From contig NZ_FOXJ01000001.1 of NCBI RefSeq assembly GCF_900115685.1, forward strand, positions 1,955,796 to 2,019,795: 64,000 nucleotides of DNA, in the 5' to 3' direction. The notes beneath the pieces were generated by a model. It ran no database searches. It was not told the origin of the DNA and saw nothing but the letters and a program-made list of their open reading frames with translations. Positions 15,605-64,000 of this stretch are shown in pieces. A program made the translations under genes and the position numbers. Position 1 is the stretch's first letter. The number at the start of each line of letters is the position of its first letter. The stretch is from Variovorax sp. 770b2. GTDB taxonomy: Bacteria > Pseudomonadota > Gammaproteobacteria > Burkholderiales > Burkholderiaceae_C.

Positions 15605-15689
<85 letters not shown>

Positions 15690-15853: not shown

Positions 15854-15938
<85 letters not shown>

Positions 15939-54740: not shown

Positions 54741-54774
54741 CGAGCTTGCTTGGGGCGGCCCGGCGCGGCGCTCA
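54741..54774 (-). repeat. 34-bp intergenic repeat, copy between lrgA and lrgB
   Basis: This segment matches 61620-61653 at 33 of 34 bases. On the minus strand it begins with the TGA stop of lrgA (TGAGCGCCGCGCCGGGCCGC) and is followed by GCGCGAAGCGCGGAGG, which supplies the lrgB ribosome binding site. Both copies sit at the same place relative to genes. Confidence 0.75.
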
Positions 54775-55129: not shown

Positions 55130-56140
55130 TCAATCTTCGGTGCAAGCGGCTGCGCGTGTCCAGGCCTCCCTCAGCGCCTGCTGGCTCTGCGGCGGCAGAA
55201 CGCCCAGGCGCACGTGGCCCGGCAGGCCGAAGGAGGCGCAGTCGCGCAGCTTGATGCCGCCGGCGCGCAACGCGGCCGCGCGCCGAGGGTAAGGCGCGTC
55301 GGTGCGGGCGCAGAAGAAATTGGCGTCGCTGGGCAGGCACTGCCAGCCCAGCGATTCGCAGAGCGCACGTTGCTGCGCCTTCCAGCTTCGTAGGGTCCGC
55401 AGGCTCTCGGCGAGCCACGCTTGCGCTTCATCGCCGGTCCATGTTTCGAGCAGCGCCACGCCGTGGGTGCCGAGCGGCCATGACGGTGCGAGCCGTTCGA
55501 GCCGCTGCATCAGGGGCGCGGCGGCGGCGTCGTCGGGCGCGATCGCGTAGGCGGCGCGGATGCCGGTGAGGCCCATGGCCTTGTTCGGCGTCCAGAGTTG
55601 CCAGACGCGGTTGCGCTGCGCGGCATCGAGCGAAGCCCGGCCTTCGAGGCGCAGCGGTTCGTAGGCCATGTCCAGAACGCAGGTGCTGCCGGCCTCGGCG
55701 TGCAGTGGGAGATCGTCCTGCGCCTGCCCCAACGGACTCGACGGCTCGCAACACCAGTGCAACGCCGCTTCGCCATACGGCTCCGGCGCACGCAGCACCT
55801 GCAGCCCCCACGCCAGTGCCGCACGCTCGTAGTCGCCGTAGCTGTGCGCCGGCAGCCAGACCTGCCGGCCACCGCCCTGCGCGACGGCCGCACCGATGCG
55901 ATGGATGAATTCGCTCGCGCTCGCAGCGATCACGAGGCGCTCGCCCCCGACGCCATGAAAAGCAGCGAGCCTTTCGCGCAACGACGTGTAGCGCGGGTCG
56001 GGATAGTGCGCAGCGTCGACCGCGCGCAACGCGGCCACCGCTGCCGGACACGCGCCCACCGCGTTGCCGTTGGTCGAGAAGTCGTGCGGCGCCGCACCGG
56101 TCTCGTCGGGGCCGCCATGCAGGGCACTGGTGAGTGTCAT
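55130..56140 (-). CDS. cobC: Threonine-phosphate decarboxylase-like aminotransferase (CobC/CobD type)
   Basis: A 336-residue fold type I PLP enzyme. HDFSTNGNAVGACPAAV is near residues 19-35, followed by YPDPRYTSLRERLA and the Schiff-base lysine in LWTPNKAMGLTGIRAAYAI near 186. The C-terminal small domain ends GIKLRDCASFGLPGHVRLG. It makes the aminopropanol-phosphate linker for the nucleotide loop, acting next to CbiB. The start overlaps the cbiB stop (ATGA). Confidence 0.9.
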   Translation of the reverse strand: MTLTSALHGGPDETGAAPHDFSTNGNAVGACPAAVAALRAVDAAHYPDPRYTSLRERLAAFHGVGGERLVIAASASEFIHRIGAAVAQGGGRQVWLPAHSYGDYERAALAWGLQVLRAPEPYGEAALHWCCEPSSPLGQAQDDLPLHAEAGSTCVLDMAYEPLRLEGRASLDAAQRNRVWQLWTPNKAMGLTGIRAAYAIAPDDAAAAPLMQRLERLAPSWPLGTHGVALLETWTGDEAQAWLAESLRTLRSWKAQQRALCESLGWQCLPSDANFFCARTDAPYPRRAAALRAGGIKLRDCASFGLPGHVRLGVLPPQSQQALREAWTRAAACTED

Positions 56141-57144
56141 GGCCATCTCGCCATCGAAAAGATCGCAAGGATCGCCACCGACGCCACCACCGCCCACGCC
56201 AGCACCGCCCTGCCGGCCAGCACGGCGGTGCGCTGCGTGTCTGCCGCCGCGGCTTTGCGCCCCTCGCCGTTCAAGGTGTAGACCCCGGGCTTGGCAAGCC
56301 GCACGCCGACCAGCAGCGCCATCGCGGCCATCGGCCAGCCGCTGTTGGGCGACGGTGTGCGGCGCGCCTCGCGCCCCAGGTCTCTTGGCCATTGCCATGC
56401 CGCCAGTGCCAGCAGCAGCACGGTGATGCGCGCGGGAAGCCACGAGAGCACATCGTCGGCGCGCGCGGCCCATTTGCCGAGCCAGGTCCAGTCGCGGCCG
56501 TTGCGGAGGCCACGGTAGCCCCACATCGCATCGGCCGTGTTGGCGAAGCGGTAGAGCGCCGCGCCCGGCAGGCCGAGCAGCACGAACCAGAACAGCGGCG
56601 CCACCAGCGAGTCGTTGAGGTTCTCGGCCAGCGACTCGATCGCGCTCTCGCGCACCTCGCGTTCGCTCAGCATGGAGACATCGCGGCTCACCAGCCGGGC
56701 CAGTTGCGCCCGGCCCGCATCGAGCGACACGGCCAGCGCCGCCTCGACCGCCAGCACTTCGTCGCGCAGCATCCGCCATGCGAAGAGCGGCTTCAACAAC
56801 AGCCCCAGCAGCGCGGCCGCGGCCCATGCGGGGAGATGCAGCGTGACGAGCGATTGCAGCAGCAACGCCGCGCACCAAACCGCCATGCCGCCGATGCACC
56901 AGGTCAACGCGCCGATGAAGAACAGCGGCAGGTCCACGCGCTTCACCTGGTGGGGCCGGGGCGCGATGCGCGAACCGACCCAGCCGAGGTACTGCCCCAT
57001 CCAGACCACGGGATGCAAGCGCGCCGTCGGCTCGCCCAGCCAGCGGTCGATGGCCAGCGCGAGCCAGAGCGCCGCGATGGCGACGAGGGCATGGGCGAAG
57101 GCCAAGGAGAAAGAAAAAGAAAAGGCAGGCATGGGCGCCGTCAT
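56137..57144 (-). CDS. cbiB: Adenosylcobinamide-phosphate synthase CbiB/CobD
   Basis: The 335-residue membrane enzyme attaches the aminopropanol linker to cobyric acid. Family features are the N-terminal LAIDRWLGEPTARLHPVVWMG near residues 30-50, RESAIESLAENLNDSLVAPLFWF near 170-192, and RTPSPNSGWPMAAMA near 268. It is 9 bases after cobN and is coupled to the next gene. An internal ATG at 57132 could also start it. Confidence 0.95.
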   Translation of the reverse strand: MTAPMPAFSFSFSLAFAHALVAIAALWLALAIDRWLGEPTARLHPVVWMGQYLGWVGSRIAPRPHQVKRVDLPLFFIGALTWCIGGMAVWCAALLLQSLVTLHLPAWAAAALLGLLLKPLFAWRMLRDEVLAVEAALAVSLDAGRAQLARLVSRDVSMLSEREVRESAIESLAENLNDSLVAPLFWFVLLGLPGAALYRFANTADAMWGYRGLRNGRDWTWLGKWAARADDVLSWLPARITVLLLALAAWQWPRDLGREARRTPSPNSGWPMAAMALLVGVRLAKPGVYTLNGEGRKAAAADTQRTAVLAGRAVLAWAVVASVAILAIFSMARWP

Positions 57145-57153
57145 TCTCGCGAA

Positions 57154-60100
57154 TCAGGCAGCGACGGCAGCCGGGTGCCGCGCCCGGCCGCGCCGCCACT
57201 GCGCGAAGGCGCCGAGCGCGATGAGCAGCGCCGCGCCGAACGCGACCCAGAGGCGGAGCACCACGGTCTCGGCCTTCGGCGGCGGTGCCTCGTCGGGCGT
57301 GGGTTCGAGCTTGAGGCCGGCCACGTGCTGGGTGCCGCTGTCTTGCGCGGGGGCGGCCTCGTCGGGTGCCGGTGCGGGCGAAGGCGCGGAGAGCGGCGTA
57401 GCCACGGGCGCCCTCTGCGCTTCCCGCGCTTCCCGCGCTTCCCGCACGTCCCGTACTTCCACGGGCGCGGCAGCCCGCGGTGCCAGTTCCGCCTGCACGA
57501 AGCGCTGCACCGCCGTATTGCGTTCGCGCAGGCCCGTGGCGCGAACGGCCTCGGCGTAAGCCTTCGCCAGCTCGCGCCGCGTCGCGGCATCGGGCGCCCA
57601 GTAGTTCAGCCGCACCGCGTCGAGCATGCGCTCCAGCGTCTGCGCGAAGGCCGCGCGGTTGTCGCCTTCCAGCCATTCGCGCGTGCCCAGCCTGTACCTG
57701 TCGCGCACGTACACGTCGTGCAGCGACTGCCACTGGTCCTGGCGCACCGTGCCGGGCGCGGTGACCTGCCAGCCCCAGAGGAACTGCGCGGTCTTGAGCA
57801 CCTGCAGCGTGCCGCTGTAGCCCTCGGCCTTCTGCGCCTGGATCCATTGCGGGTGCAGGTAGCGCGTCTGCATTTCGCGCGCGATGGCGCCGGCGGCGGT
57901 GTCGGTGCGCACCGCGCCGCCGTCGCGCAGGTTCTGCACGTACAGCGCCGGGTCCTTGCCCGTGAGCTGGCGCACGGCCTGCGCGATGCCGCCGAGGTAC
58001 TGGAACGGATCGTCGTTGGTGAGCACGCCGTAGAGATTGGACGTGCGCGCCATCAGCGCCGCATCGACCTGCGCGAGGTTGCCCGCGTAGGCGCCGGGCC
58101 GCGCCACGCCGTCGAGCCCTTGCCCGTAGGCGTGGCCCATGCGGTCCATGTAGAGCCGCGCCATCTGCGCATCACCACCGCCGCGGCGCTGCGAAGCCCA
58201 CACATCGCTCGCGAGCGCAGCTTCTTCGAGCCCGGCACCGTAGCTGCCCTGCTCGTTCGAGAACACGCGCGCGGTCGACCAGCGCGTCGCCTCGGCCGGC
58301 GTGGCGCCTTCCGCGCGCAGCTTGCGGGCCAGCGCGTTGCTGTGCCGCGCGACGGCGTTGCCGGGCTCGTCCAGCGCGGCCACCTGCTGCACCGCCTCGT
58401 CGAGCCAGCGCATCACGTTGGGAAACTGGTCGCGGTACGAGCCCGTCACGCTGACCAGCACGTCCATGCGCGGCCGCTTCAGCGCCGATGCGGGCAGCAC
58501 CTCGATGCCGGCGATGCGCCCTGCCTCGTCCCAGCGCGGCTTCACGCCCATGGCGTAGAAGGCCTGGCTCTCCATCACGCCCTGATGGCGCGAGGCCTCG
58601 CCGGCCCAGAGGGTGAAGGCGATCTTTTCGGGCGGCTTGCCGGCGTGGCCTTTGGCGTGTTCGGCGATCCATGCGTCCATCGCGGCGACGCCGATGTCCC
58701 ACGCGGCCCGCGTCGGCACACGGCTCGGGTCGAAACCGTAGAGATTGCGCCCGGTCGGCAGGCTGTCGGGATTGCGCACCGGGTCGCCGCCGTAGCTGGC
58801 TTTGAGGTAGCGGCCGTCGAGCGCGGTGAGCAGGCCTTCGATTTCTTCGTTGTGCGCGAGTGCGGCGTCGATCTTCTGCGCGCGCAGGGCCATGGTTCGC
58901 AGCGCCTTGGCATCCGCGCCCATTGCGCTCGCGGTATCGGCATCCTTGACCGCGACTTCGACCCATCGTGCGAGGCGCGAAGCCGCGATGTTCTTCGCAT
59001 CGACAAGGAAGGCCTCATCGACGTCTTCGCCCAGCGCCTCGGCCAGCGGCTTGCCAAGGATCTGCAGGATCGTCATGCGGCGACGCTCCGCATCCGGCGC
59101 CTGCCCGAAGGTTGCGAGGCCCAGCGGCTGCGCGGTCTGCGCCAGTTCGTCCAGGTACGGATGCAGCACCGCGATGAAGCCGGCGAAGTCGGCGCGAATG
59201 CGTGCGGGCGTCCATTTCAGGTCGCGGTCGTAGTGCTGTTCGACGAACTCCGCGGCGAGCTCTTTTTCCATCGCGGCTTTCACCGGCCCGGGCGACAGCG
59301 TCTCCCAGTCGTGCATCCGCTCATGCATTGCCTGCACGCCGGGGCGAAAGCCCGCGGGCGCGAACATCGGTGTCGAGTGGCTCACCATCGTCGCGCGGCC
59401 GCGGCGCTTGGCGGTCGTGGCCTCGCCGAGGTTGTCCATGATGTACGGGTAGACGTTGGGCAGGTCGCCGAGCGCGAGCAGCGGATCGTCCTGCACCGAG
59501 AGCCCGCGCTCCTTGCCGGCCGACCATTCGACCGTGCCGTGCGTGCCCACGTGCACGACCGCGCTCGCGCCGAACTGCGTGCGCAGCCACAGGTACGTCG
59601 CCAGGTAGCCATGGCTCAGCGGAATGGCCGAGCGGTGGTAGACCTGCTCCGCCTTGCCCGCCACCTGCGTACCGGGCTCGAAGCGCGGCGGCTGGCGCAG
59701 CACGACGACGTTGCCGAACTGCACGCGCGGGACGACGAAGGCTTGCTCGCCCGCGACGGGCCGCAGCATCGTCGATTTCTCCGGTGGCCCCCAGTAGGTC
59801 TCGATGCGGCGCTGCGTCTCCACCGGCAGTGCGCGAAACCACGCGACGTAGCGCGACAGCGGCAGCGAATCGGCCAGTCCCTTGTCGAGCAGCGGCTGCA
59901 ACGCATCGCCGCCATCGACGGGGTAGTAGGCCTTCATGGTCGCCTGCACCTGCGCGATGAGCGCGTCCGCGCCGGGTATCTCGGTGCGGTAGCCCGCCGA
60001 CTGCATCGCCGCCAGCATGTGGTTCACGCTGCGCGGCACGTTGAGAAACGACGCACCGAAGTTCGCCTCGCCCGGCGGGTAGTTGTAGACCAGCAGCGCG

Positions 60101-61215
60101 ACGCGCCGGTCCGCGGCCGGCGTGCGCTGCAGCCGCAGCAGCGCAGCGGCCTTGCCGGCCACCGCGTCGATCTGCGCGGGCAGCGGCTGCAGCGTGCCGC
60201 CGGCGGCATCGCGCGCGCTCACGAGCATCGGGTCGGTCATGCCGGCCAGTTCGCTCGGGCTGTAGTAGGAGGCGATGTCGGTCTGCGCGAGGCCGTCCTT
60301 GCTTGCGGCCCACTGGGTAGCGTCCATCGCGAGCGACGGCAGGGTCTGCAGCACCGGCACGCCGATGCGCTCCAGCTCGGCCTTGCGCTCGTTCGGCGTG
60401 AAGACCAGCGCGGCGTTGACGATCAGGTCGGCCACGCGGCGCCCGTCCCCATCGCCCGCGTGCGTCATGCGAAAGAACAGGTCCTTCTGCTGGCGTGGGC
60501 CGTAGAAGGCGTAGGCGCGAAGGCCGCGCTGTTCGAGTGCGCCGATCAGCGTGTCGAGCCAGCCGGTGTCGTCGCCCGTCACGGTGGCGCCGTTGATGGC
60601 GATGGCGACGGTTCCGGTCGTGCCGGGCAGCTTGTCCACTGCCGCGAGGCCGGTCTCGATGCGCGGCCAGCGCGGGTGATAGAAGCCCGAGAGCGGCGTC
60701 GGCACGGGTGGCGGCAGTCCGTTCACGTCGTCGATCTGCGCCAACGCCTTCATCGCCGACTTCAGGTTGGCCGCTCCCGCGAACCGCCAGTACGCCCGCA
60801 ACCGCTGTGCCCAGGCCGCATCGACGCCGCGTTCGGCAGCGAGCGGCGCGGCGCTGGAGGTTTGCCCCTTGGCCACGAGCGCGAACTCGCCGATCAGCAC
60901 ATACGGCACGGCACTGCGCGAAACCACATCGCCGAAGCGCGCCGCCGCGGCCTGCGCCACGCTGATGTGTGGCGCATCGATCACCAGCAGCCGCGTGCCG
61001 TCGAGGGCCGCTGCCAGCGCTTCAGGCGAATCCTTCGCGGCCGACACCACCTGCAGCGGCAGCCCCGCTTCGTGCGCCGCTTCCTGCAGCCGCACCACGC
61101 GCGCCGGGGACACCAGCGATGTGCTCAGCACCACGATGCGCGAAGGCTCGTCCGGCTCGGCGTGTGCGCAGAACGCCAGCGCCATCAGCAAGAGCCAGGC
61201 GAGGAGGCGCGTCAC
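57154..61215 (-). CDS. cobN: Exported, membrane-anchored CobN-family cobaltochelatase large subunit
   Basis: The 1353-residue protein has the CobN/BchH catalytic domain. VHVGTHGTVEWSAGKE is near residues 554-569, AWDIGVAAMDAW near 845 and VTGSYRDQFPNVMRW follows. Unlike textbook CobN it begins with a signal peptide (hydrophobic residues 4-17, AHA at 17-19). It ends with a disordered Pro/Ala-rich segment (about 1258-1315), one membrane helix (about 1320-1338) and a basic tail. The topology therefore places the chelatase domain in the periplasm. The GTG start overlaps the stop of the DUF2149 gene (GTGA). CobS and CobT AAA partners are not in this window. The reaction could be metal insertion or removal on a corrinoid or another tetrapyrrole. 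Confidence 0.9.
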   Translation of the reverse strand: MTRLLAWLLLMALAFCAHAEPDEPSRIVVLSTSLVSPARVVRLQEAAHEAGLPLQVVSAAKDSPEALAAALDGTRLLVIDAPHISVAQAAAARFGDVVSRSAVPYVLIGEFALVAKGQTSSAAPLAAERGVDAAWAQRLRAYWRFAGAANLKSAMKALAQIDDVNGLPPPVPTPLSGFYHPRWPRIETGLAAVDKLPGTTGTVAIAINGATVTGDDTGWLDTLIGALEQRGLRAYAFYGPRQQKDLFFRMTHAGDGDGRRVADLIVNAALVFTPNERKAELERIGVPVLQTLPSLAMDATQWAASKDGLAQTDIASYYSPSELAGMTDPMLVSARDAAGGTLQPLPAQIDAVAGKAAALLRLQRTPAADRRVALLVYNYPPGEANFGASFLNVPRSVNHMLAAMQSAGYRTEIPGADALIAQVQATMKAYYPVDGGDALQPLLDKGLADSLPLSRYVAWFRALPVETQRRIETYWGPPEKSTMLRPVAGEQAFVVPRVQFGNVVVLRQPPRFEPGTQVAGKAEQVYHRSAIPLSHGYLATYLWLRTQFGASAVVHVGTHGTVEWSAGKERGLSVQDDPLLALGDLPNVYPYIMDNLGEATTAKRRGRATMVSHSTPMFAPAGFRPGVQAMHERMHDWETLSPGPVKAAMEKELAAEFVEQHYDRDLKWTPARIRADFAGFIAVLHPYLDELAQTAQPLGLATFGQAPDAERRRMTILQILGKPLAEALGEDVDEAFLVDAKNIAASRLARWVEVAVKDADTASAMGADAKALRTMALRAQKIDAALAHNEEIEGLLTALDGRYLKASYGGDPVRNPDSLPTGRNLYGFDPSRVPTRAAWDIGVAAMDAWIAEHAKGHAGKPPEKIAFTLWAGEASRHQGVMESQAFYAMGVKPRWDEAGRIAGIEVLPASALKRPRMDVLVSVTGSYRDQFPNVMRWLDEAVQQVAALDEPGNAVARHSNALARKLRAEGATPAEATRWSTARVFSNEQGSYGAGLEEAALASDVWASQRRGGGDAQMARLYMDRMGHAYGQGLDGVARPGAYAGNLAQVDAALMARTSNLYGVLTNDDPFQYLGGIAQAVRQLTGKDPALYVQNLRDGGAVRTDTAAGAIAREMQTRYLHPQWIQAQKAEGYSGTLQVLKTAQFLWGWQVTAPGTVRQDQWQSLHDVYVRDRYRLGTREWLEGDNRAAFAQTLERMLDAVRLNYWAPDAATRRELAKAYAEAVRATGLRERNTAVQRFVQAELAPRAAAPVEVRDVREAREAREAQRAPVATPLSAPSPAPAPDEAAPAQDSGTQHVAGLKLEPTPDEAPPPKAETVVLRLWVAFGAALLIALGAFAQWRRGRARHPAAVAA
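57419..57463 (-). repeat. 9-bp tandem repeat inside cobN
   Basis: Three perfect copies of GCTTCCCGC (57419-57445) and two degenerate ones encode a VRDVREAREAREA-type charged repeat. It lies in the flexible stretch between the CobN catalytic domain and the Pro-rich membrane-proximal linker. Copy number could vary without breaking the frame. Confidence 0.8.
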
Positions 61216-61577
61216 TTCCCGCCCTGCACCGCCGAAGCTGCCGGAACGGCGTCCGCCGGCACATAGACCATCGTGCCGTCCTTCAGCCGCCAGGCCGTAC
61301 CGGCCTTCTCGCCGTCGCCCTGCCCCGTCGCGCCGCTGGCCTTGAAGCGCGTGACCTTCTGCCCTTCGCGCGTGATGATCTCCATGTCCGGCTTGCCCTC
61401 GTTGCGGATGATCGTCACCTTGTCCTGCGCGAACGGGTTCATCGGGTTGTTGATGACCGCGATCATCAGCATGCCGATGACCACCATGAACACGTCGATC
61501 AGGTTGATGGTCGAGAGCACCGGGTCGTCGTCGTCCGTGTCCAGGCTGCTCAGGATCGAGAACTGACGACGGGTCAT
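61212..61577 (-). CDS. DUF2149 protein, ExbD-like
   Basis: A 121-residue protein with an acidic N-terminus (DTDDDDPV) and one membrane helix at residues about 26-44. The sequence NLIDVFMVVIGMLM has the form of ExbD/TolR, where the Asp (here residue 28) carries protons. A small periplasmic domain follows. I recognise it as DUF2149, a family that accompanies CobN-like genes. It lies between an ExbB-type channel gene and cobN, and its stop overlaps the cobN GTG. Confidence 0.82.
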   Translation of the reverse strand: MTRRQFSILSSLDTDDDDPVLSTINLIDVFMVVIGMLMIAVINNPMNPFAQDKVTIIRNEGKPDMEIITREGQKVTRFKASGATGQGDGEKAGTAWRLKDGTMVYVPADAVPAASAVQGGK

Positions 61578-61619
61578 CGGTGCACCCTTGGCGCTGCGCG
61601 CCTTCCCGCCAAGCGGGAG

Positions 61620-61653
61620 CGAGCTTGCTCGGGGCGGCCCGGCGCGGCGCTCA
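61620..61653 (-). repeat. 34-bp intergenic repeat, copy between exbB and DUF2149 gene
   Basis: It matches 54741-54774 with a single difference. On the minus strand it starts with the exbB stop codon and is followed by a short inverted repeat (CCCGCTTGGCGGG) and the AAGGG ribosome binding site of the DUF2149 gene. Confidence 0.75.
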
Positions 61654-62124
61654 TGACAAGCGATCCCGCGCATCGAGCACCATCACCAGTTCGCGCATCA
61701 GCCAGCGGCGACGCACCGTGTAGACCACGAAGGTGATCGAGGCCGAGGCGAGCGCCACGATCACCGCGGCGAACGCGGGCGCAAGGCTCTGCGCCACGCC
61801 GTGCGATTCGCCCGACGCAACGGCCACCAGCGCCGGCCCCATCGGGATCATGGTGGCGATGAGCCCGAGCATGGGCGCCACGCGGCTGCACAGGCGCACG
61901 CCTTCGAGGTGCTTGAGCACCACCAGCTCCATCTGCTCCTGGCTCGCATCGGCATGGCGCCGCAGCGCCAGCACGCGCGAGGGGTCGCGGCGGCGCTGCA
62001 GGTACTCGATGCCGAAGGCGCCGAGGCAATACACCGCATAGACGAAGGACAGCAGCACGCCGAGCGTCACGGGCCAGAGGAACAGGCGCGCGATCTCGAA
62101 GAGGACGGTATCGAAGGCCAGCAT
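61651..62124 (-). CDS. MotA/TolQ/ExbB proton channel family protein
   Basis: A 157-residue protein with three membrane helices, near residues 10-38, 85-105 and 115-140. The TolQ/ExbB-type block is RVAPMLGLIATMIPMGPALVAVA, followed by a helix with small and hydroxyl residues and a cytoplasmic EYLQRRRDPSRVLALRRHADA helix. It is shorter than classical ExbB and resembles the channel proteins found beside CobN/DUF2149. Its ATG overlaps the bluB stop by one base (TGATG). Confidence 0.85.
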   Translation of the reverse strand: MLAFDTVLFEIARLFLWPVTLGVLLSFVYAVYCLGAFGIEYLQRRRDPSRVLALRRHADASQEQMELVVLKHLEGVRLCSRVAPMLGLIATMIPMGPALVAVASGESHGVAQSLAPAFAAVIVALASASITFVVYTVRRRWLMRELVMVLDARDRLS

Positions 62125-62813
62125 CAGGCGGTTTCCACGGAAGACGGGGTAAGGGAAAACAGGTCCGACGGCTGGCCCCAGCGCTCGTCGAACACCAGTG
62201 CCGAGAGCGGTTCGCGCTTCGACCAGCGTTCGCGCTGCAGAATCGGCTCTTCGTAGAAATCGTGCACCGGGCCCAGGCACAGCAAGGCGATGGGCTCGGC
62301 GCCTTCGGGCAGGCCGAGCAAGGCGCTCAATTCGGCCGGATCGAACAGCGACACCCACCCCATGCCCAGCCCTTCGGCACGCGCCGCGAGCCAGAGGTTC
62401 TGGATCGCACAGGAGGCCGAGGCCAGGTCCATCTGCGGCAGGGTGCGGCGGCCGAACACGTGCTTGTCGCGGCCATCGGCGAGCGACACGGCCAGCAACT
62501 CGGCCGCATCGAGCAGGCCCTGCACCTTCAGGCGCATGAATTCGTCTTCGCGCTCGCCGAGGGCGCGCGCCGTGAGCACGCGTTCGCGCTCGACCGCATC
62601 GTGCAGGCGATGGCGCAGTGCGGCATCGCGGATGCGGATGAAGCGCCACGGCTGCATGAAGCCGACGCTGGGCGCGTGATGCGCCGCTTCGAGCAGCGTG
62701 CGCAGGACGTCGGGCGCGACCGCGCCACCCGCGAAGTGCCGCATGTCGCGCCGCTCGCGGATGGCGCGGTACACCGCCCTCGTCTCGTCGGCCGCGAATG
62801 CGTGCTGCGCCAT
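62124..62813 (-). CDS. bluB: 5,6-dimethylbenzimidazole synthase BluB
   Basis: A 229-residue nitroreductase-fold flavin destructase that turns FMNH2 plus oxygen into the lower ligand DMB. RRDMRHFAGGAVAPDVL is near residues 20-36, HHAPSVGFMQPWRFI near 45-59, MDLASASCAIQNLWLAARAEGLGMGWVSLFDP near 128-159, and LCLGPVHDF near 180. These are BluB-specific rather than general nitroreductase blocks. Product is used by CobT of cluster A. The stop overlaps the start of the channel gene. Confidence 0.93.
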   Translation of the reverse strand: MAQHAFAADETRAVYRAIRERRDMRHFAGGAVAPDVLRTLLEAAHHAPSVGFMQPWRFIRIRDAALRHRLHDAVERERVLTARALGEREDEFMRLKVQGLLDAAELLAVSLADGRDKHVFGRRTLPQMDLASASCAIQNLWLAARAEGLGMGWVSLFDPAELSALLGLPEGAEPIALLCLGPVHDFYEEPILQRERWSKREPLSALVFDERWGQPSDLFSLTPSSVETA

Positions 62814-62818
62814 CGCGC

Positions 62819-63388
62819 TCAATCCTCGATGCCGCGCTGCGCCGGGATGCCGGCCTTGAACGCGTGCTTGACCATGGTCATCTCGGTCACGGTGTCGGCC
62901 AGCTCGATGATCTCGGGTGGACAGCGGCGCCCCGTGAGTGCCACGTGCACGTGCCTGGGCCGCGCGCGCAGCGTTTCGAGCACGCCTTCGAGCGGCAGCC
63001 AGCCGTAGATCAGCGGGTAGGTGATCTCGTCGAGCACCACCAAGAAGAACTCGCCCGAGAGGATCGCCGCCTTCGCCTTCTCCCACCCGTCGCGCGCCAG
63101 TTGGCCCGAGCGTTCGAGGTCCTGGCTCTTCCAGCTGAAGCCGTCGCCCAGCCCTTCGATCGGAATGCCGATCTGCTCGAACATGCGGTGCTCGCCGAAG
63201 CGTGCCGAGGGCACCTTCATGAACTGGTAGATCTTCACGGCCTTGCCGCGGCCGTGGGCGCGCAGCGCGAGGCCGAATGCGGCCGTGCTCTTGCCCTTGC
63301 CGTCGCCGGTGTTGACGATGACGATGCCGCGGCGTTCGCCCTCGGGCTTCTCGTAGGGCTTTTCGCTGGGGGGAGTTTCGATCTGCAT
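62819..63388 (-). CDS. cobO: Cob(I)yrinic acid a,c-diamide adenosyltransferase CobO/BtuR
   Basis: The 189-residue ATP:corrinoid adenosyltransferase has the P-loop GDGKGKST at residues 28-35, KIYQFMKVP, the Walker B-like [10 protein letters not shown], and a C-terminal [26 protein letters not shown] block. It acts in de novo synthesis and in salvage of imported corrinoids. The start ATG at 63388 lies 11 bases after the ABC ATPase gene. Confidence 0.95.
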
Positions 63389-63399
63389 GTGTGTGTTCC

Positions 63400-64000
63400 T
63401 TATTTCGGCAGCGCGATCCACTGGTCCGCCACGCGGTGCACGCGGATGCGGTGGTCGAACACCTGTTCGAGCGCGGTGTGGGTGGCCGGGTCGTCGCAGC
63501 CGCCGTGGTGCACCACGCGGCCCTTGTCCATCACGACCATTTCATCGGCGGCCAGCGCCATCGGCAGCTCGTGCAGCACGCTGACCACGGTGCGGCCTTC
63601 GGCCACGAGCGTGCGGGCGGTCTGCATCCAGTCGGCCTGGTGCGGCGGGTCGAGGTTGGCGAGCGGCTCGTCCATCAGCAGCACCTGCGCTTCGACCGCG
63701 AGGGCGCGGGCGAGCAGCACGCGCTGGCGTTCGCCGCCCGAGAGCTGGCCGAGCGGCCGGTCGCGCCAGTCCCAGGCCTGCGTGCTGCGCAGGGCCCGCT
63801 CCACGGCTTCGCGGTCGGCCTCGCTCGGGGCCGCGAGCCAGCGCTGGTGCGGCAGGCGGCCAAGCATGGCGACGTCGTAGACCATCAGGTCGTCGGCGCT
63901 CGCCTCGCCCGTGCCGCTCTGGCCGAGCCACGAGAGGCGCTGCGCGCGGATGCGGGCCGGGATCTTGCCCTCCGCCTCGCCGAAGAGCCGCACCTCGCCC
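63400..64000 (-). CDS. ABC transporter ATP-binding protein, BtuD/FepC type, C-terminal part
   Basis: The frame is open to the right edge, so the N-terminus with the Walker A motif is outside. Visible are the ABC signature [15 protein letters not shown], Walker [13 protein letters not shown], the switch His in [15 protein letters not shown], and the C-terminal [20 protein letters not shown]. It groups with the FecCD-type cobalamin and siderophore importers. Adjacent cobO, bluB and cobN argue for corrinoid uptake, so BtuD is the likely role. Confidence 0.88.

What the first reader, a model, noticed from the sequence alone, without database searches (positions are those of the whole stretch)
57154..62124. 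Periplasmic CobN coupled to an ExbB/ExbD-like proton channel: a candidate PMF-driven tetrapyrrole chelatase or dechelatase
Seen: three consecutive minus-strand genes encode an ExbB/TolQ-type channel (157 aa), an ExbD-like DUF2149 protein (121 aa) and a 1353-aa CobN with signal peptide and C-terminal anchor. DUF2149 and cobN overlap (GTGA). Known: classical aerobic cobaltochelatase is cytoplasmic and powered by the AAA proteins CobS and CobT; ExbB/ExbD harvest the proton gradient. As I recall, the hmuS-hmuU-hmuV genes of Bacteroidota pair a CobN-like protein with the same two accessory families for haem. Inference: the channel pair energises CobN across the membrane to insert or remove metal from a corrinoid or porphyrin before import. 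I know of no characterised example in Betaproteobacteria.
Basis: partly seen in the sequence, partly recalled or inferred. Interest (0 to 1): 0.88.

Follow-up and report, generated by a model that had tools for sequence, protein, structure and literature searches.

The report
Proton-powered metal stripper for vitamin B12
Beside its vitamin B12 uptake genes this Variovorax-type bacterium, in which no gene for a key B12 ring-making step (CbiC) was found, encodes a relative of the cobalt-inserting enzyme CobN that is predicted to work outside the inner membrane, likely driven by the proton gradient instead of ATP, where it would strip wrong metals from scavenged B12 precursors.

Summary
An ExbB-like channel (157 aa), a DUF2149 protein (121 aa) and a 1353-aa CobN-family protein with signal peptide and C-terminal anchor form a tight trio. 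It sits inside an operon headed by a cobalamin riboswitch: btuB-cobB-cobU-btuFCD-cobO-bluB-[trio]-cbiB-cobC. The host is Variovorax-like.

New here:
(1) This CobN is not the classical enzyme. It falls below the TIGR02257 cut-off and lies in a separate, predicted periplasmic clade.
(2) DUF2149 carries an invariant membrane Asp that aligns with that of ExbD. Most CobN tails carry a VxGxxL-type motif just before the anchor.
(3) The genome lacks CbiC, so it very likely cannot build corrin rings. In 61 genus genomes DUF2149 (24) and CbiC (8) never coincide.
(4) 23 of the 24 also carry a classical CobN, which in the six loci read adjoins ChlI, ChlD and CobW; 0 of 29 genomes with neither do.

Reading: a PMF-driven periplasmic chelatase-type unit in corrinoid salvage, most likely a dechelatase for mis-metallated corrins. 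Metal removal, its direction and PMF coupling are inferred. The kind is known (HmuS-HmuU-HmuV, BtuS); the B12-linked form is a new variant.

The parts
57154..61215 (-). CobN-family protein, 1353 aa, predicted periplasmic and membrane-anchored
   Evidence: PF02514 E 7.7e-291; NF004644 1338.2 bits over cut-off 1248, TIGR02257 513.7 bits under cut-off 822.05
61159..61215 (-). signal peptide, MTRLLAWLLLMALAFCAHA
   Evidence: sequence; hydropathy 2.65 over 13 residues; prediction only
59539..59541 (-). His559 of the GTHG motif, equivalent to HmuS His-538
   Evidence: alignment; needed for haem conversion in HmuS (PMC12583661 section 22)
57988..58017 (-). active-site loop NDDPFQYLGG: Asp1069 and Gln1072 at the places of HmuS His-1209 and Glu-1212
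57307..57324 (-). juxtamembrane motif VAGLKL ([VI]xGxx[LM])
   Evidence: before the anchor in 74 of 78 periplasmic-type tails, 0 of 9 classical CobN/ChlH tails
57202..57264 (-). C-terminal transmembrane anchor
   Evidence: hydropathy 2.37 over 17 residues
61212..61577 (-). DUF2149 protein, ExbD-like membrane helix
   Evidence: PF09919; AlphaFold helix 19-42, beta elements after it, low confidence
61494..61496 (-). membrane Asp28 of DUF2149, invariant
   Evidence: 18 of 18, 86 of 86 rows (partly the same rows)
61651..62124 (-). ExbB/TolQ-like channel, 157 aa
   Evidence: PF01618
61852..61854 (-). Thr91 of the ExbB-like protein, aligned with a Thr of three of the genome's own ExbB/TolQ-type proteins
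62124..62819 (-). bluB
   Evidence: TIGR02476 249.4 bits, cut-off 150
62819..63421 (-). cobO/btuR
   Evidence: NF004637 216.9 bits, cut-off 185
63400..64000 (-). btuD-like ATPase, runs off the window; btuC, btuF, cobU, cobB, btuB and the riboswitch follow upstream in L005
56137..57144 (-). cbiB
   Evidence: TIGR00380 215.2 bits, cut-off 165.9
55130..56152 (-). cobC/threonine-phosphate decarboxylase-like aminotransferase
   Evidence: TIGR01140 109.8 bits, below cut-off 290.55

Best explanation
The trio encodes a CobN-family protein that is predicted to be tethered on the periplasmic face of the inner membrane, together with an ExbB-like and an ExbD-like (DUF2149) protein that likely drive it with the proton gradient, so that it would strip non-cobalt metals from scavenged corrins before import. 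Shown by sequence or search: the gene order, the riboswitch match, the topology signals, the invariant channel residues, the CobN-type active-site pair, the absence of CbiC and the co-occurrence with a classical CobN. Inferred: BtuB brings in corrins, some carrying Zn, Cu or Ni; the ExbB/DUF2149 motor pulls on the Pro/Ala-rich tether through its VxGxxL motif, as ExbB/ExbD pull on TonB; the CobN body opens, protonates the ring and lets the metal go; the freed corrin passes to BtuFCD; inside, CobB amidates it and, where present, CobN2-ChlI-ChlD with CobW inserts cobalt. In trio genomes without a second CobN the unit would either just clear useless corrins or put the cobalt in itself.
For: Context: cobalamin riboswitch ahead of the operon, also ahead of the trio operon in L040 and L169, L041 and L042, and in L055. 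Among trio loci of other context, none in 4 of 4 (L029, L034, L036, L038) and none in 5 of 7; L108 and L110 have one. All 15 Variovorax/Polaromonas loci keep the B12 order (BluB unmatched in L056, L060 and L065 cut by contig ends). No corrin-ring synthesis: CbiC absent in G000 and in all 5 B12-context genomes of the order sample; in the genus 0 of 24 DUF2149 genomes has CbiC against 8 of 37 others (P 0.018). Cobalt insertion inside: classical CobN in 23 of 24 DUF2149 genomes, 5 of 8 CbiC genomes and 0 of 29 with neither (P 4e-14 for 23/24 against 0/29; counts), with CobW, ChlI, ChlD and an importer beside it in 6 of 6 loci of trio genomes read. Motor: invariant Asp28; hhalign with the genome's ExbDs E 1.1e-4 (probability only 55.8) pairs the two Asp; invariant Thr91. 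Tether motif 74 of 78 against 0 of 9. Precedent: HmuS, encoded with the same two partners, removes iron from haem (PMC12583661, PMC10434189). Chemistry: metal-free corrin takes up Cu about 200 times faster than Co, and Zn also faster than Co, and such corrins are proposed as B12 antimetabolites (PMC12174906, passages).
Against: No enzyme activity of this subgroup is known. Five B12-context genomes (G171, G025, G072, G116, G284) have no second CobN, so strip-and-refill cannot be general. The four tails without the motif are exactly the B12-context proteins of other lineages (L040, L041, L042, L043), and L041-L043 have NNDAFD (Asp/Asp) instead of Asp/Gln. A close relative on a Comamonadaceae plasmid (70.5% identity) has the trio with no B12 gene annotated in 14 kb on either side. 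Riboswitch misses: L043 (its stretch ends just beyond btuB) and the CobN2 locus L176. Wrong-metal corrins in nature are not documented in what I read. DUF2149 is not matched by the ExbD Pfam model even at E 10, and its predicted outer part is low-confidence beta. The ExbB-like protein has Ala where host protein L047 has Glu in the last helix. ExbB-DUF2149 occurs without adjacent CobN in some loci. The HmuS papers report NADH dependence in vitro, and one credits HmuU/HmuV with powering the outer-membrane receptor. One paper assigns the anaerobic B12 pathway to its own Variovorax strain (PMC9430724); in my sample 8 of 61 genus genomes have CbiC.
Confidence: 0.36

Rival explanations
1. The trio is a periplasmic cobaltochelatase: it uses the proton gradient to insert cobalt into metal-free corrins before BtuFCD import.
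For: Active-site pair Asp/Gln as in classical CobN; works without a second CobN, as in G171, G284, G025, G072, G116; metal-free corrins are known compounds (PMC6790578, PMC12174906, passages).
Against: The closest characterised relative with the same partners removes metal (PMC12583661); most Variovorax trio genomes already have a cobalt-inserting enzyme inside; I saw no cobalt-carrier gene in the operon.
Confidence: 0.2
2. The ExbB-like and DUF2149 proteins power the outer-membrane receptor BtuB, and the CobN protein is a separate periplasmic corrinoid binder.
For: Papers assign PA1924 and HmuU/HmuV this role (PMC4542158; PMC12583661; passages).
Against: The host has five ordinary ExbD/TolR genes; Trichlorobacter lovleyi carries an exbB-exbD-tonB set right next to the trio; DUF2149 overlaps cobN; most CobN tails carry a conserved motif by the anchor.
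Confidence: 0.15
3. A corrinoid relay without metal chemistry: the CobN body catches corrinoids from BtuB and the motor releases them to BtuF.
For: Operon position among receptor, importer and salvage genes; classical CobN co-purifies with its corrin substrate (PMC7689651, passage).
Against: His559, the residue needed for catalysis in HmuS, is kept; a BtuF-like binder is present in the same operon.
Confidence: 0.12
4. A haem dechelatase of HmuS type that happens to sit in a B12 operon.
For: Same gene trio as hmuS-hmuU-hmuV (PMC10434189, passages).
Against: Riboswitch and B12 neighbours; HmuS motif LSLDHxxEFMGG not met; no room for the Met-rich insertion (58 residues between the aligned blocks where HmuS has 223).
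Confidence: 0.06
5. Classical cytoplasmic cobaltochelatase subunit acting with the CobS/CobT pair elsewhere in the genome.
For: CobS/CobT-like genes on contig C8.
Against: They lie beside sulfoacetaldehyde acetyltransferase; CobS is below its cut-off (515.3 of 558.55); signal peptide and anchor on this CobN; a classical CobN with ChlI/ChlD-like genes exists; no CbiC.
Confidence: 0.03

Closest known systems
HmuS-HmuU-HmuV of Bacteroidota (haem dechelatase HmuS, PDB 9d26)
   Same: CobN-family protein with membrane segments at both ends, ExbB-like and DUF2149 partners, TonB receptor, conserved GTHG histidine.
   Different: Haem operon and iron control against B12 riboswitch; HmuS has His-1209/Glu-1212 and a Met-rich insertion, the window protein has Asp1069/Gln1072 and no such insertion. 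In what I read, no HmuS paper proposes a proton drive; PMC13227078 only says that HmuT, HmuU and HmuV may affect HmuS activity.
BtuS family (Rodionov et al. 2003, as cited in PMC6460266; the 2003 paper is not held)
   Same: Third type of CobN-like protein, predicted periplasmic, proposed for metalloporphyrin salvage.
   Different: I could not read whether the B12-operon form in Betaproteobacteria or the ExbB/DUF2149 link was described there.
Classical cobaltochelatase CobN with CobS/CobT or ChlI/ChlD
   Same: Family PF02514; same Asp/Gln pair in the active-site loop.
   Different: ATP motor, cytoplasm, CobW beside it; the window protein has signal peptide, anchor, tail motif and an ExbB/DUF2149 pair, and scores under the TIGR02257 cut-off.
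cobN-exbB-exbD-tonB cluster of Geobacter (Trichlorobacter) lovleyi plasmid pSZ77 (PMC3403914)
   Same: CobN-like gene without CobS/CobT next to B12 genes and an ExbB/DUF2149 pair.
   Different: The paper reports growth without added cyanocobalamin, so this host makes B12; the cluster has a DUF2162 transporter and its own exbB-exbD-tonB. The paper calls the CobN's role unknown and does not name DUF2149 in the passages I saw.
PA1922-PA1925 of Pseudomonas aeruginosa (Zur regulon)
   Same: TonB receptor, CobN-like, ExbD-named channel gene and DUF2149 gene (PMC4542158, PMC9431628, passages).
   Different: Zinc-controlled, not B12-controlled.

Membership tests
Classical cobaltochelatase CobN | CobN/Mg-chelatase domain over the full body | tested here: met
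   PF02514 7.7e-291, residues 141-1212
Classical cobaltochelatase CobN | Score over the TIGR02257 (cobalto_cobN) cut-off | tested here: not met
   513.7 against 822.05 bits; the genome's second CobN scores 1554.8
Classical cobaltochelatase CobN | Cytoplasmic, no signal peptide or anchor | tested here: not met
   Hydropathy of both ends; the classical CobNs examined lack the tail anchor; prediction only
Classical cobaltochelatase CobN | AAA+ motor genes (CobS/CobT or ChlI/ChlD) beside it | tested here: not met
   None among the operon genes identified; they sit with CobN2
Classical cobaltochelatase CobN | Host makes the corrin ring | tested here: not met
   No CbiC in G000; other ring enzymes not searched
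HmuS haem dechelatase | Operon with ExbB-like (HmuU) and DUF2149 (HmuV) genes | tested here: met
   hmu gene list in PMC10434189
HmuS haem dechelatase | Catalytic His-538 in the GTHG motif | tested here: met
   His559
HmuS haem dechelatase | LSLDHxxEFMGG motif with His-1209 and Glu-1212 | tested here: not met
   LTNDDPFQYLGG
HmuS haem dechelatase | Methionine-rich insertion | tested here: not met
   58 window residues between the aligned blocks against 223 in HmuS
HmuS haem dechelatase | Met-79 and His-254 haem site | tested here: inconclusive
   The alignment starts at HmuS residue 332
HmuS haem dechelatase | Removes iron from haem | not testable with these tools
   needs protein
ExbB/TolQ/MotA channel | PF01618 match and conserved membrane Thr | tested here: met
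   E 3.3e-7; Thr91 invariant in 18, aligned with three host ExbB/TolQ-type proteins
ExbB/TolQ/MotA channel | Glu in the last membrane helix (ExbB type) | tested here: not met
   Ala at that column; only one of three host proteins aligned there has Glu
ExbD | PF02472 match | tested here: not met
   no match to E 10; hhalign probability 55.8, E 1.1e-4
ExbD | Single N-terminal membrane helix with Asp | tested here: met
   Asp28 invariant in 18 of 18; helix 19-42
ExbD | ExbD-type periplasmic domain | tested here: inconclusive
   low-confidence beta elements (pLDDT 65, pTM 0.28)
BtuS | As defined by Rodionov 2003 | not tested
   paper not held; known only through PMC6460266

The most novel reading that the evidence does not exclude
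A metal-correction relay for vitamin B12 across the inner membrane: bacteria that cannot make the corrin ring strip wrong metals from scavenged corrins outside with a proton-driven CobN-ExbB-DUF2149 machine and re-load cobalt inside with an ATP-driven CobN-ChlI-ChlD machine. The same proton-driven module, with its active-site loop retuned, serves iron, zinc, nickel and cobalt acquisition elsewhere, which makes ExbB/ExbD-type motors a general power source for tetrapyrrole (de)metallation.
Probability: 0.22. Interest if true: 0.9.

Novelty: new variant of a known kind. Interest (0 to 1): 0.7.

Why it matters
If true, it adds a third power source for class I chelatases. ATP drives CobS/CobT and ChlI/ChlD; NADH dependence is reported for HmuS; here the proton gradient would do the work, through a motor tied (from recall) to transport, motility and outer-membrane upkeep. 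It gives DUF2149/HmuV, described as without homology to any known family in PMC13227078, a testable ExbD-like role. It also predicts that B12 auxotrophs can use metal-free or mis-metallated corrins, a traffic in B12 precursors that I found no paper on. A two-gene knock-out in a harmless soil bacterium would test it.

Tried and rejected
CobS/CobT as partner: found on contig C8, but beside sulfoacetaldehyde acetyltransferase (Xsc), so set aside as the B12 motor.

ExbD homology by profile against solved structures gave nothing (best E 0.21, not ExbD); by Pfam nothing; only hhalign against the host's ExbDs gave a weak hit.

Two AlphaFold runs of DUF2149 stayed low-confidence, so I ran no fold search.

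My own B12-box pattern (recalled consensus) missed riboswitches that Rfam found (against 15, 73); it was not used. Rfam was run on 25 of the 188 loci and on the window.

At order level DUF2149 and CbiC are not significantly linked either way (2 of 18 against 15 of 232, P 0.35); the exclusion holds only in the genus sample. Genomes in one genus are not independent, so all P values overstate the evidence.

The 79 of 79 membrane-Asp count is partly built in, because searched with a pattern holding that Asp; the 18 of 18 came from an HMM search.

The first tail-motif count (75 of 78) included one match inside an anchor (L042); restricted to the stretch before the anchor it is 74 of 78, 76 of the 78 sequences being distinct. 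Three sequences of 1250 residues or fewer were left out (L078, L093, L108_o1). Rows left out of the tree: 10 near-duplicate or short sequences; 13 comparison sequences were hand-picked, and the Trichlorobacter CobN did not pass my ORF filter.

DUF2149 and the periplasmic-type CobN lie on one contig in 23 of 24 genus genomes; in G271 they are on different contigs.
Full report
Observation. bluB and exbB overlap as TGATG. The operon runs on both sides. Upstream, outside the window but in the same genome (L005), lie btuD, btuC, btuF, cobU, cobB and btuB; downstream lie cbiB and a cobC-like gene. CobB, CobO, BluB and CbiB pass an NCBIfam cut-off. BtuB, CobU, BtuC, BtuD and CobC are names from matches below cut-off; BtuF is named by context, its only NCBIfam match at E 1e-20 being an ABC substrate-binding family below cut-off. 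A cobalamin riboswitch precedes btuB (L005:11149-10884, 50.7 bits).

Host. The best DUF2149 matches in named genomes are Variovorax (up to 98% identity over the matched part). The genome (G000, 7.45 Mb, 100% complete) has no CbiC/CobH, the ring-contraction isomerase family, while the same search finds it in 17 of 250 genomes of the order and 7 of 14 control genomes. I take this as loss of corrin-ring synthesis; the other ring enzymes were not searched. A paper says that its own Variovorax strain encodes the anaerobic pathway (PMC9430724, passages), so the genus is mixed, as my 8 of 61 with CbiC also say.

Two CobNs. G000 has a second CobN. It passes TIGR02257 with 1554.8 bits (cut-off 822.05), while the window protein scores 513.7 and instead passes NF004644. 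The second one has CobW and a CbiM-family cobalt permease before it, ChlI- and VWA-domain (ChlD-like) genes after it, and its own cobalamin riboswitch ahead of a TonB receptor. A tree of 85 sequences rooted on ChlH puts the classical and the periplasmic CobNs in separate clades, each with support 1.0.

Genus survey (61 genomes). DUF2149: 24, with a periplasmic-type CobN match in all 24, on the same contig in 23. CbiC: 8. Overlap: 0. Classical CobN: 23 of 24 DUF2149 genomes (not G284), 5 of 8 CbiC genomes, 0 of 29 with neither; two of these 29 have ChlH-type matches. The two CobN loci are far apart, 1.34 Mb in G000. In 6 of 6 loci read (L006, L161, L162, L163, L174, L176) the classical CobN of DUF2149 genomes has CobW, ChlI, ChlD and an importer beside it. 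So the trio goes with cobalt insertion but not with ring synthesis. That is the pattern expected if these bacteria take in corrins whose metal must be changed or supplied.

Order survey (250 genomes). DUF2149: 18; CobN family: 57, including 17 of the 18; CbiC in 2 of the 18. Five of the 18 have B12 context: G000, G171, G025, G072, G116; none of the five has CbiC, and four of them have no second CobN. In the tree G025, G072 and G116 form a clade apart from the Variovorax one, so the link to B12 arose at least twice or is old. That clade differs: it has GRHS for GTHG, NNDAFD for NDDPFQ, and no tail motif.

Named survey. Of 80 loci kept of more, 15 (L051-L065, all Variovorax or Polaromonas) have the window's B12 order, BluB being unmatched in L056 and two loci cut by contig ends; most of the rest have a TonB receptor, CobN, ExbB and DUF2149. 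CobN is matched in 69 of 80. A plasmid of Comamonadaceae bacterium OTU4NAUVB1 has a 70.5% identical CobN with its two partners and no B12 gene annotated nearby.

Motor. DUF2149 has an invariant Asp in its single predicted membrane helix (NLIDVF in the window; 18 of 18). hhalign pairs this Asp with that of the host's five ExbD/TolR proteins (probability 55.8, E 1.1e-4). The ExbB-like protein keeps the Thr shared by three host ExbB/TolQ-type proteins but not the Glu seen in one of them, L047. That these residues serve proton use in ExbB/ExbD is recalled knowledge.

Tether. Behind the CobN body comes an Ala/Pro-rich stretch, then [VI]xGxx[LM], then the anchor with Arg/Lys after it. The motif stands within 50 residues before the anchor in 74 of 78 periplasmic-type proteins (76 distinct) and in the last 100 residues of 0 of 9 classical CobN/ChlH; shuffling the same stretches gives 1.4% (53 of 3900). 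The four misses are L040 and L041-L043, the B12-context proteins of other lineages. I infer a docking site for DUF2149 in the majority form. The likeness to the Pro-rich linker of TonB is recalled.

Active site. HmuS needs His-538 (sections 14 and 22 of PMC12583661); the window has His559 there. At His-1209/Glu-1212 of HmuS the window has Asp1069/Gln1072, as do the classical CobNs examined, while a set of proteobacterial periplasmic CobNs has mostly DHPFE(Y/F), His/Glu like HmuS. This favours a corrin over haem for the window protein, but many cassettes without B12 context share the Asp/Gln pair, so it is no proof.

Wider family. The trio lies between hypF and hypC-hypD-hypE beside hydrogenase genes in Runella slithyformis, with a weakly NicO-like membrane protein below cut-off; near nikR in Azospirillum brasilense; with B12 and cobalt-importer genes plus a separate exbB-exbD-tonB in Trichlorobacter lovleyi; in the Zur regulon in P. 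aeruginosa (PMC4542158, PMC9431628, passages); and in hmu operons (PMC10434189, passages). A metal-acquisition module that takes metals out of tetrapyrroles fits all of these. This leans the direction towards removal.

Why removal of wrong metals. PMC12174906 (passages) reports that metal-free hydrogenobyric acid binds Cu(II) about 200 times faster than Co(II), and Zn(II) at about a fifth of the Cu(II) rate, hence also faster than Co(II), and calls such corrins candidate antimetabolites. Whether such corrins reach soil bacteria is unknown.

Literature. Searches for DUF2149+CobN, HmuS+CobN, BtuS+cobalamin, PA1923+Zur, CobN+periplasmic+ExbB+cobalamin, hydrogenobyrinic+salvage, metal-free corrin+zinc, CobN+proton motive force+chelatase and Variovorax+cobalamin+auxotroph returned no title or abstract opening that proposes a proton-driven CobN; for the papers I opened I saw only the passages and sections named here. 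Seen: PMC12583661 (abstract, passages, sections 12, 14, 22, 23), PMC6460266 (abstract, section 3.5), PMC13227078 (passages, section 3.1), and passages only of PMC10434189, PMC9431628, PMC10846266, PMC3403914, PMC4542158, PMC7689651, PMC6790578, PMC12174906, PMC9430724, PMC10409787. PMC13227078 does allow that HmuT, HmuU and HmuV may affect HmuS activity. Rodionov 2003 is not held and may contain part of the B12 link.

Verdict. Real, conserved and in print as a kind (HmuS/BtuS). This B12-riboswitch form in genomes without CbiC, its pairing with a second classical chelatase, the ExbD-like reading of DUF2149 and the tail motif are new to what I could search. The mechanism is inferred.

Noticed in passing
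L183 (Runella slithyformis plasmid pRUNSL01) 3140-11174: The ExbB-DUF2149-CobN trio with a TonB receptor and a weakly NicO-like membrane protein is inserted among hyp genes for nickel hydrogenase maturation, suggesting a nickel version.
   Followed up: partly
L118 (Azonexus hydrophilus): Two trios lie in one locus on opposite strands.
   Followed up: no
L070, L089, L091: ExbB-DUF2149 pairs downstream of an RND-pump-like gene with no CobN match within 10 kb on either side; the partner is unknown.
   Followed up: partly
L044 6209-11778 (G000 contig C8): A CobS/CobT-like pair beside sulfoacetaldehyde acetyltransferase, apparently outside B12 metabolism.
   Followed up: partly
window 54744-54763 and 61623-61642: A 20-base GC-rich repeat in the exbB-DUF2149 gap and in the lrgA-lrgB gap, one mismatch (mean 0.08 expected, 1 of 100 shuffles reached two).
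   Followed up: no
window 15605-15689 and 15854-15938: Two tRNA-Leu (CAG) genes whose starts are 249 bases apart, with the same Rfam score.
   Followed up: no
Periplasmic CobN clade: Two main active-site subtypes, DDPFQ and mostly DHPFE, the second resembling HmuS, may mark different substrates or metals.
   Followed up: partly
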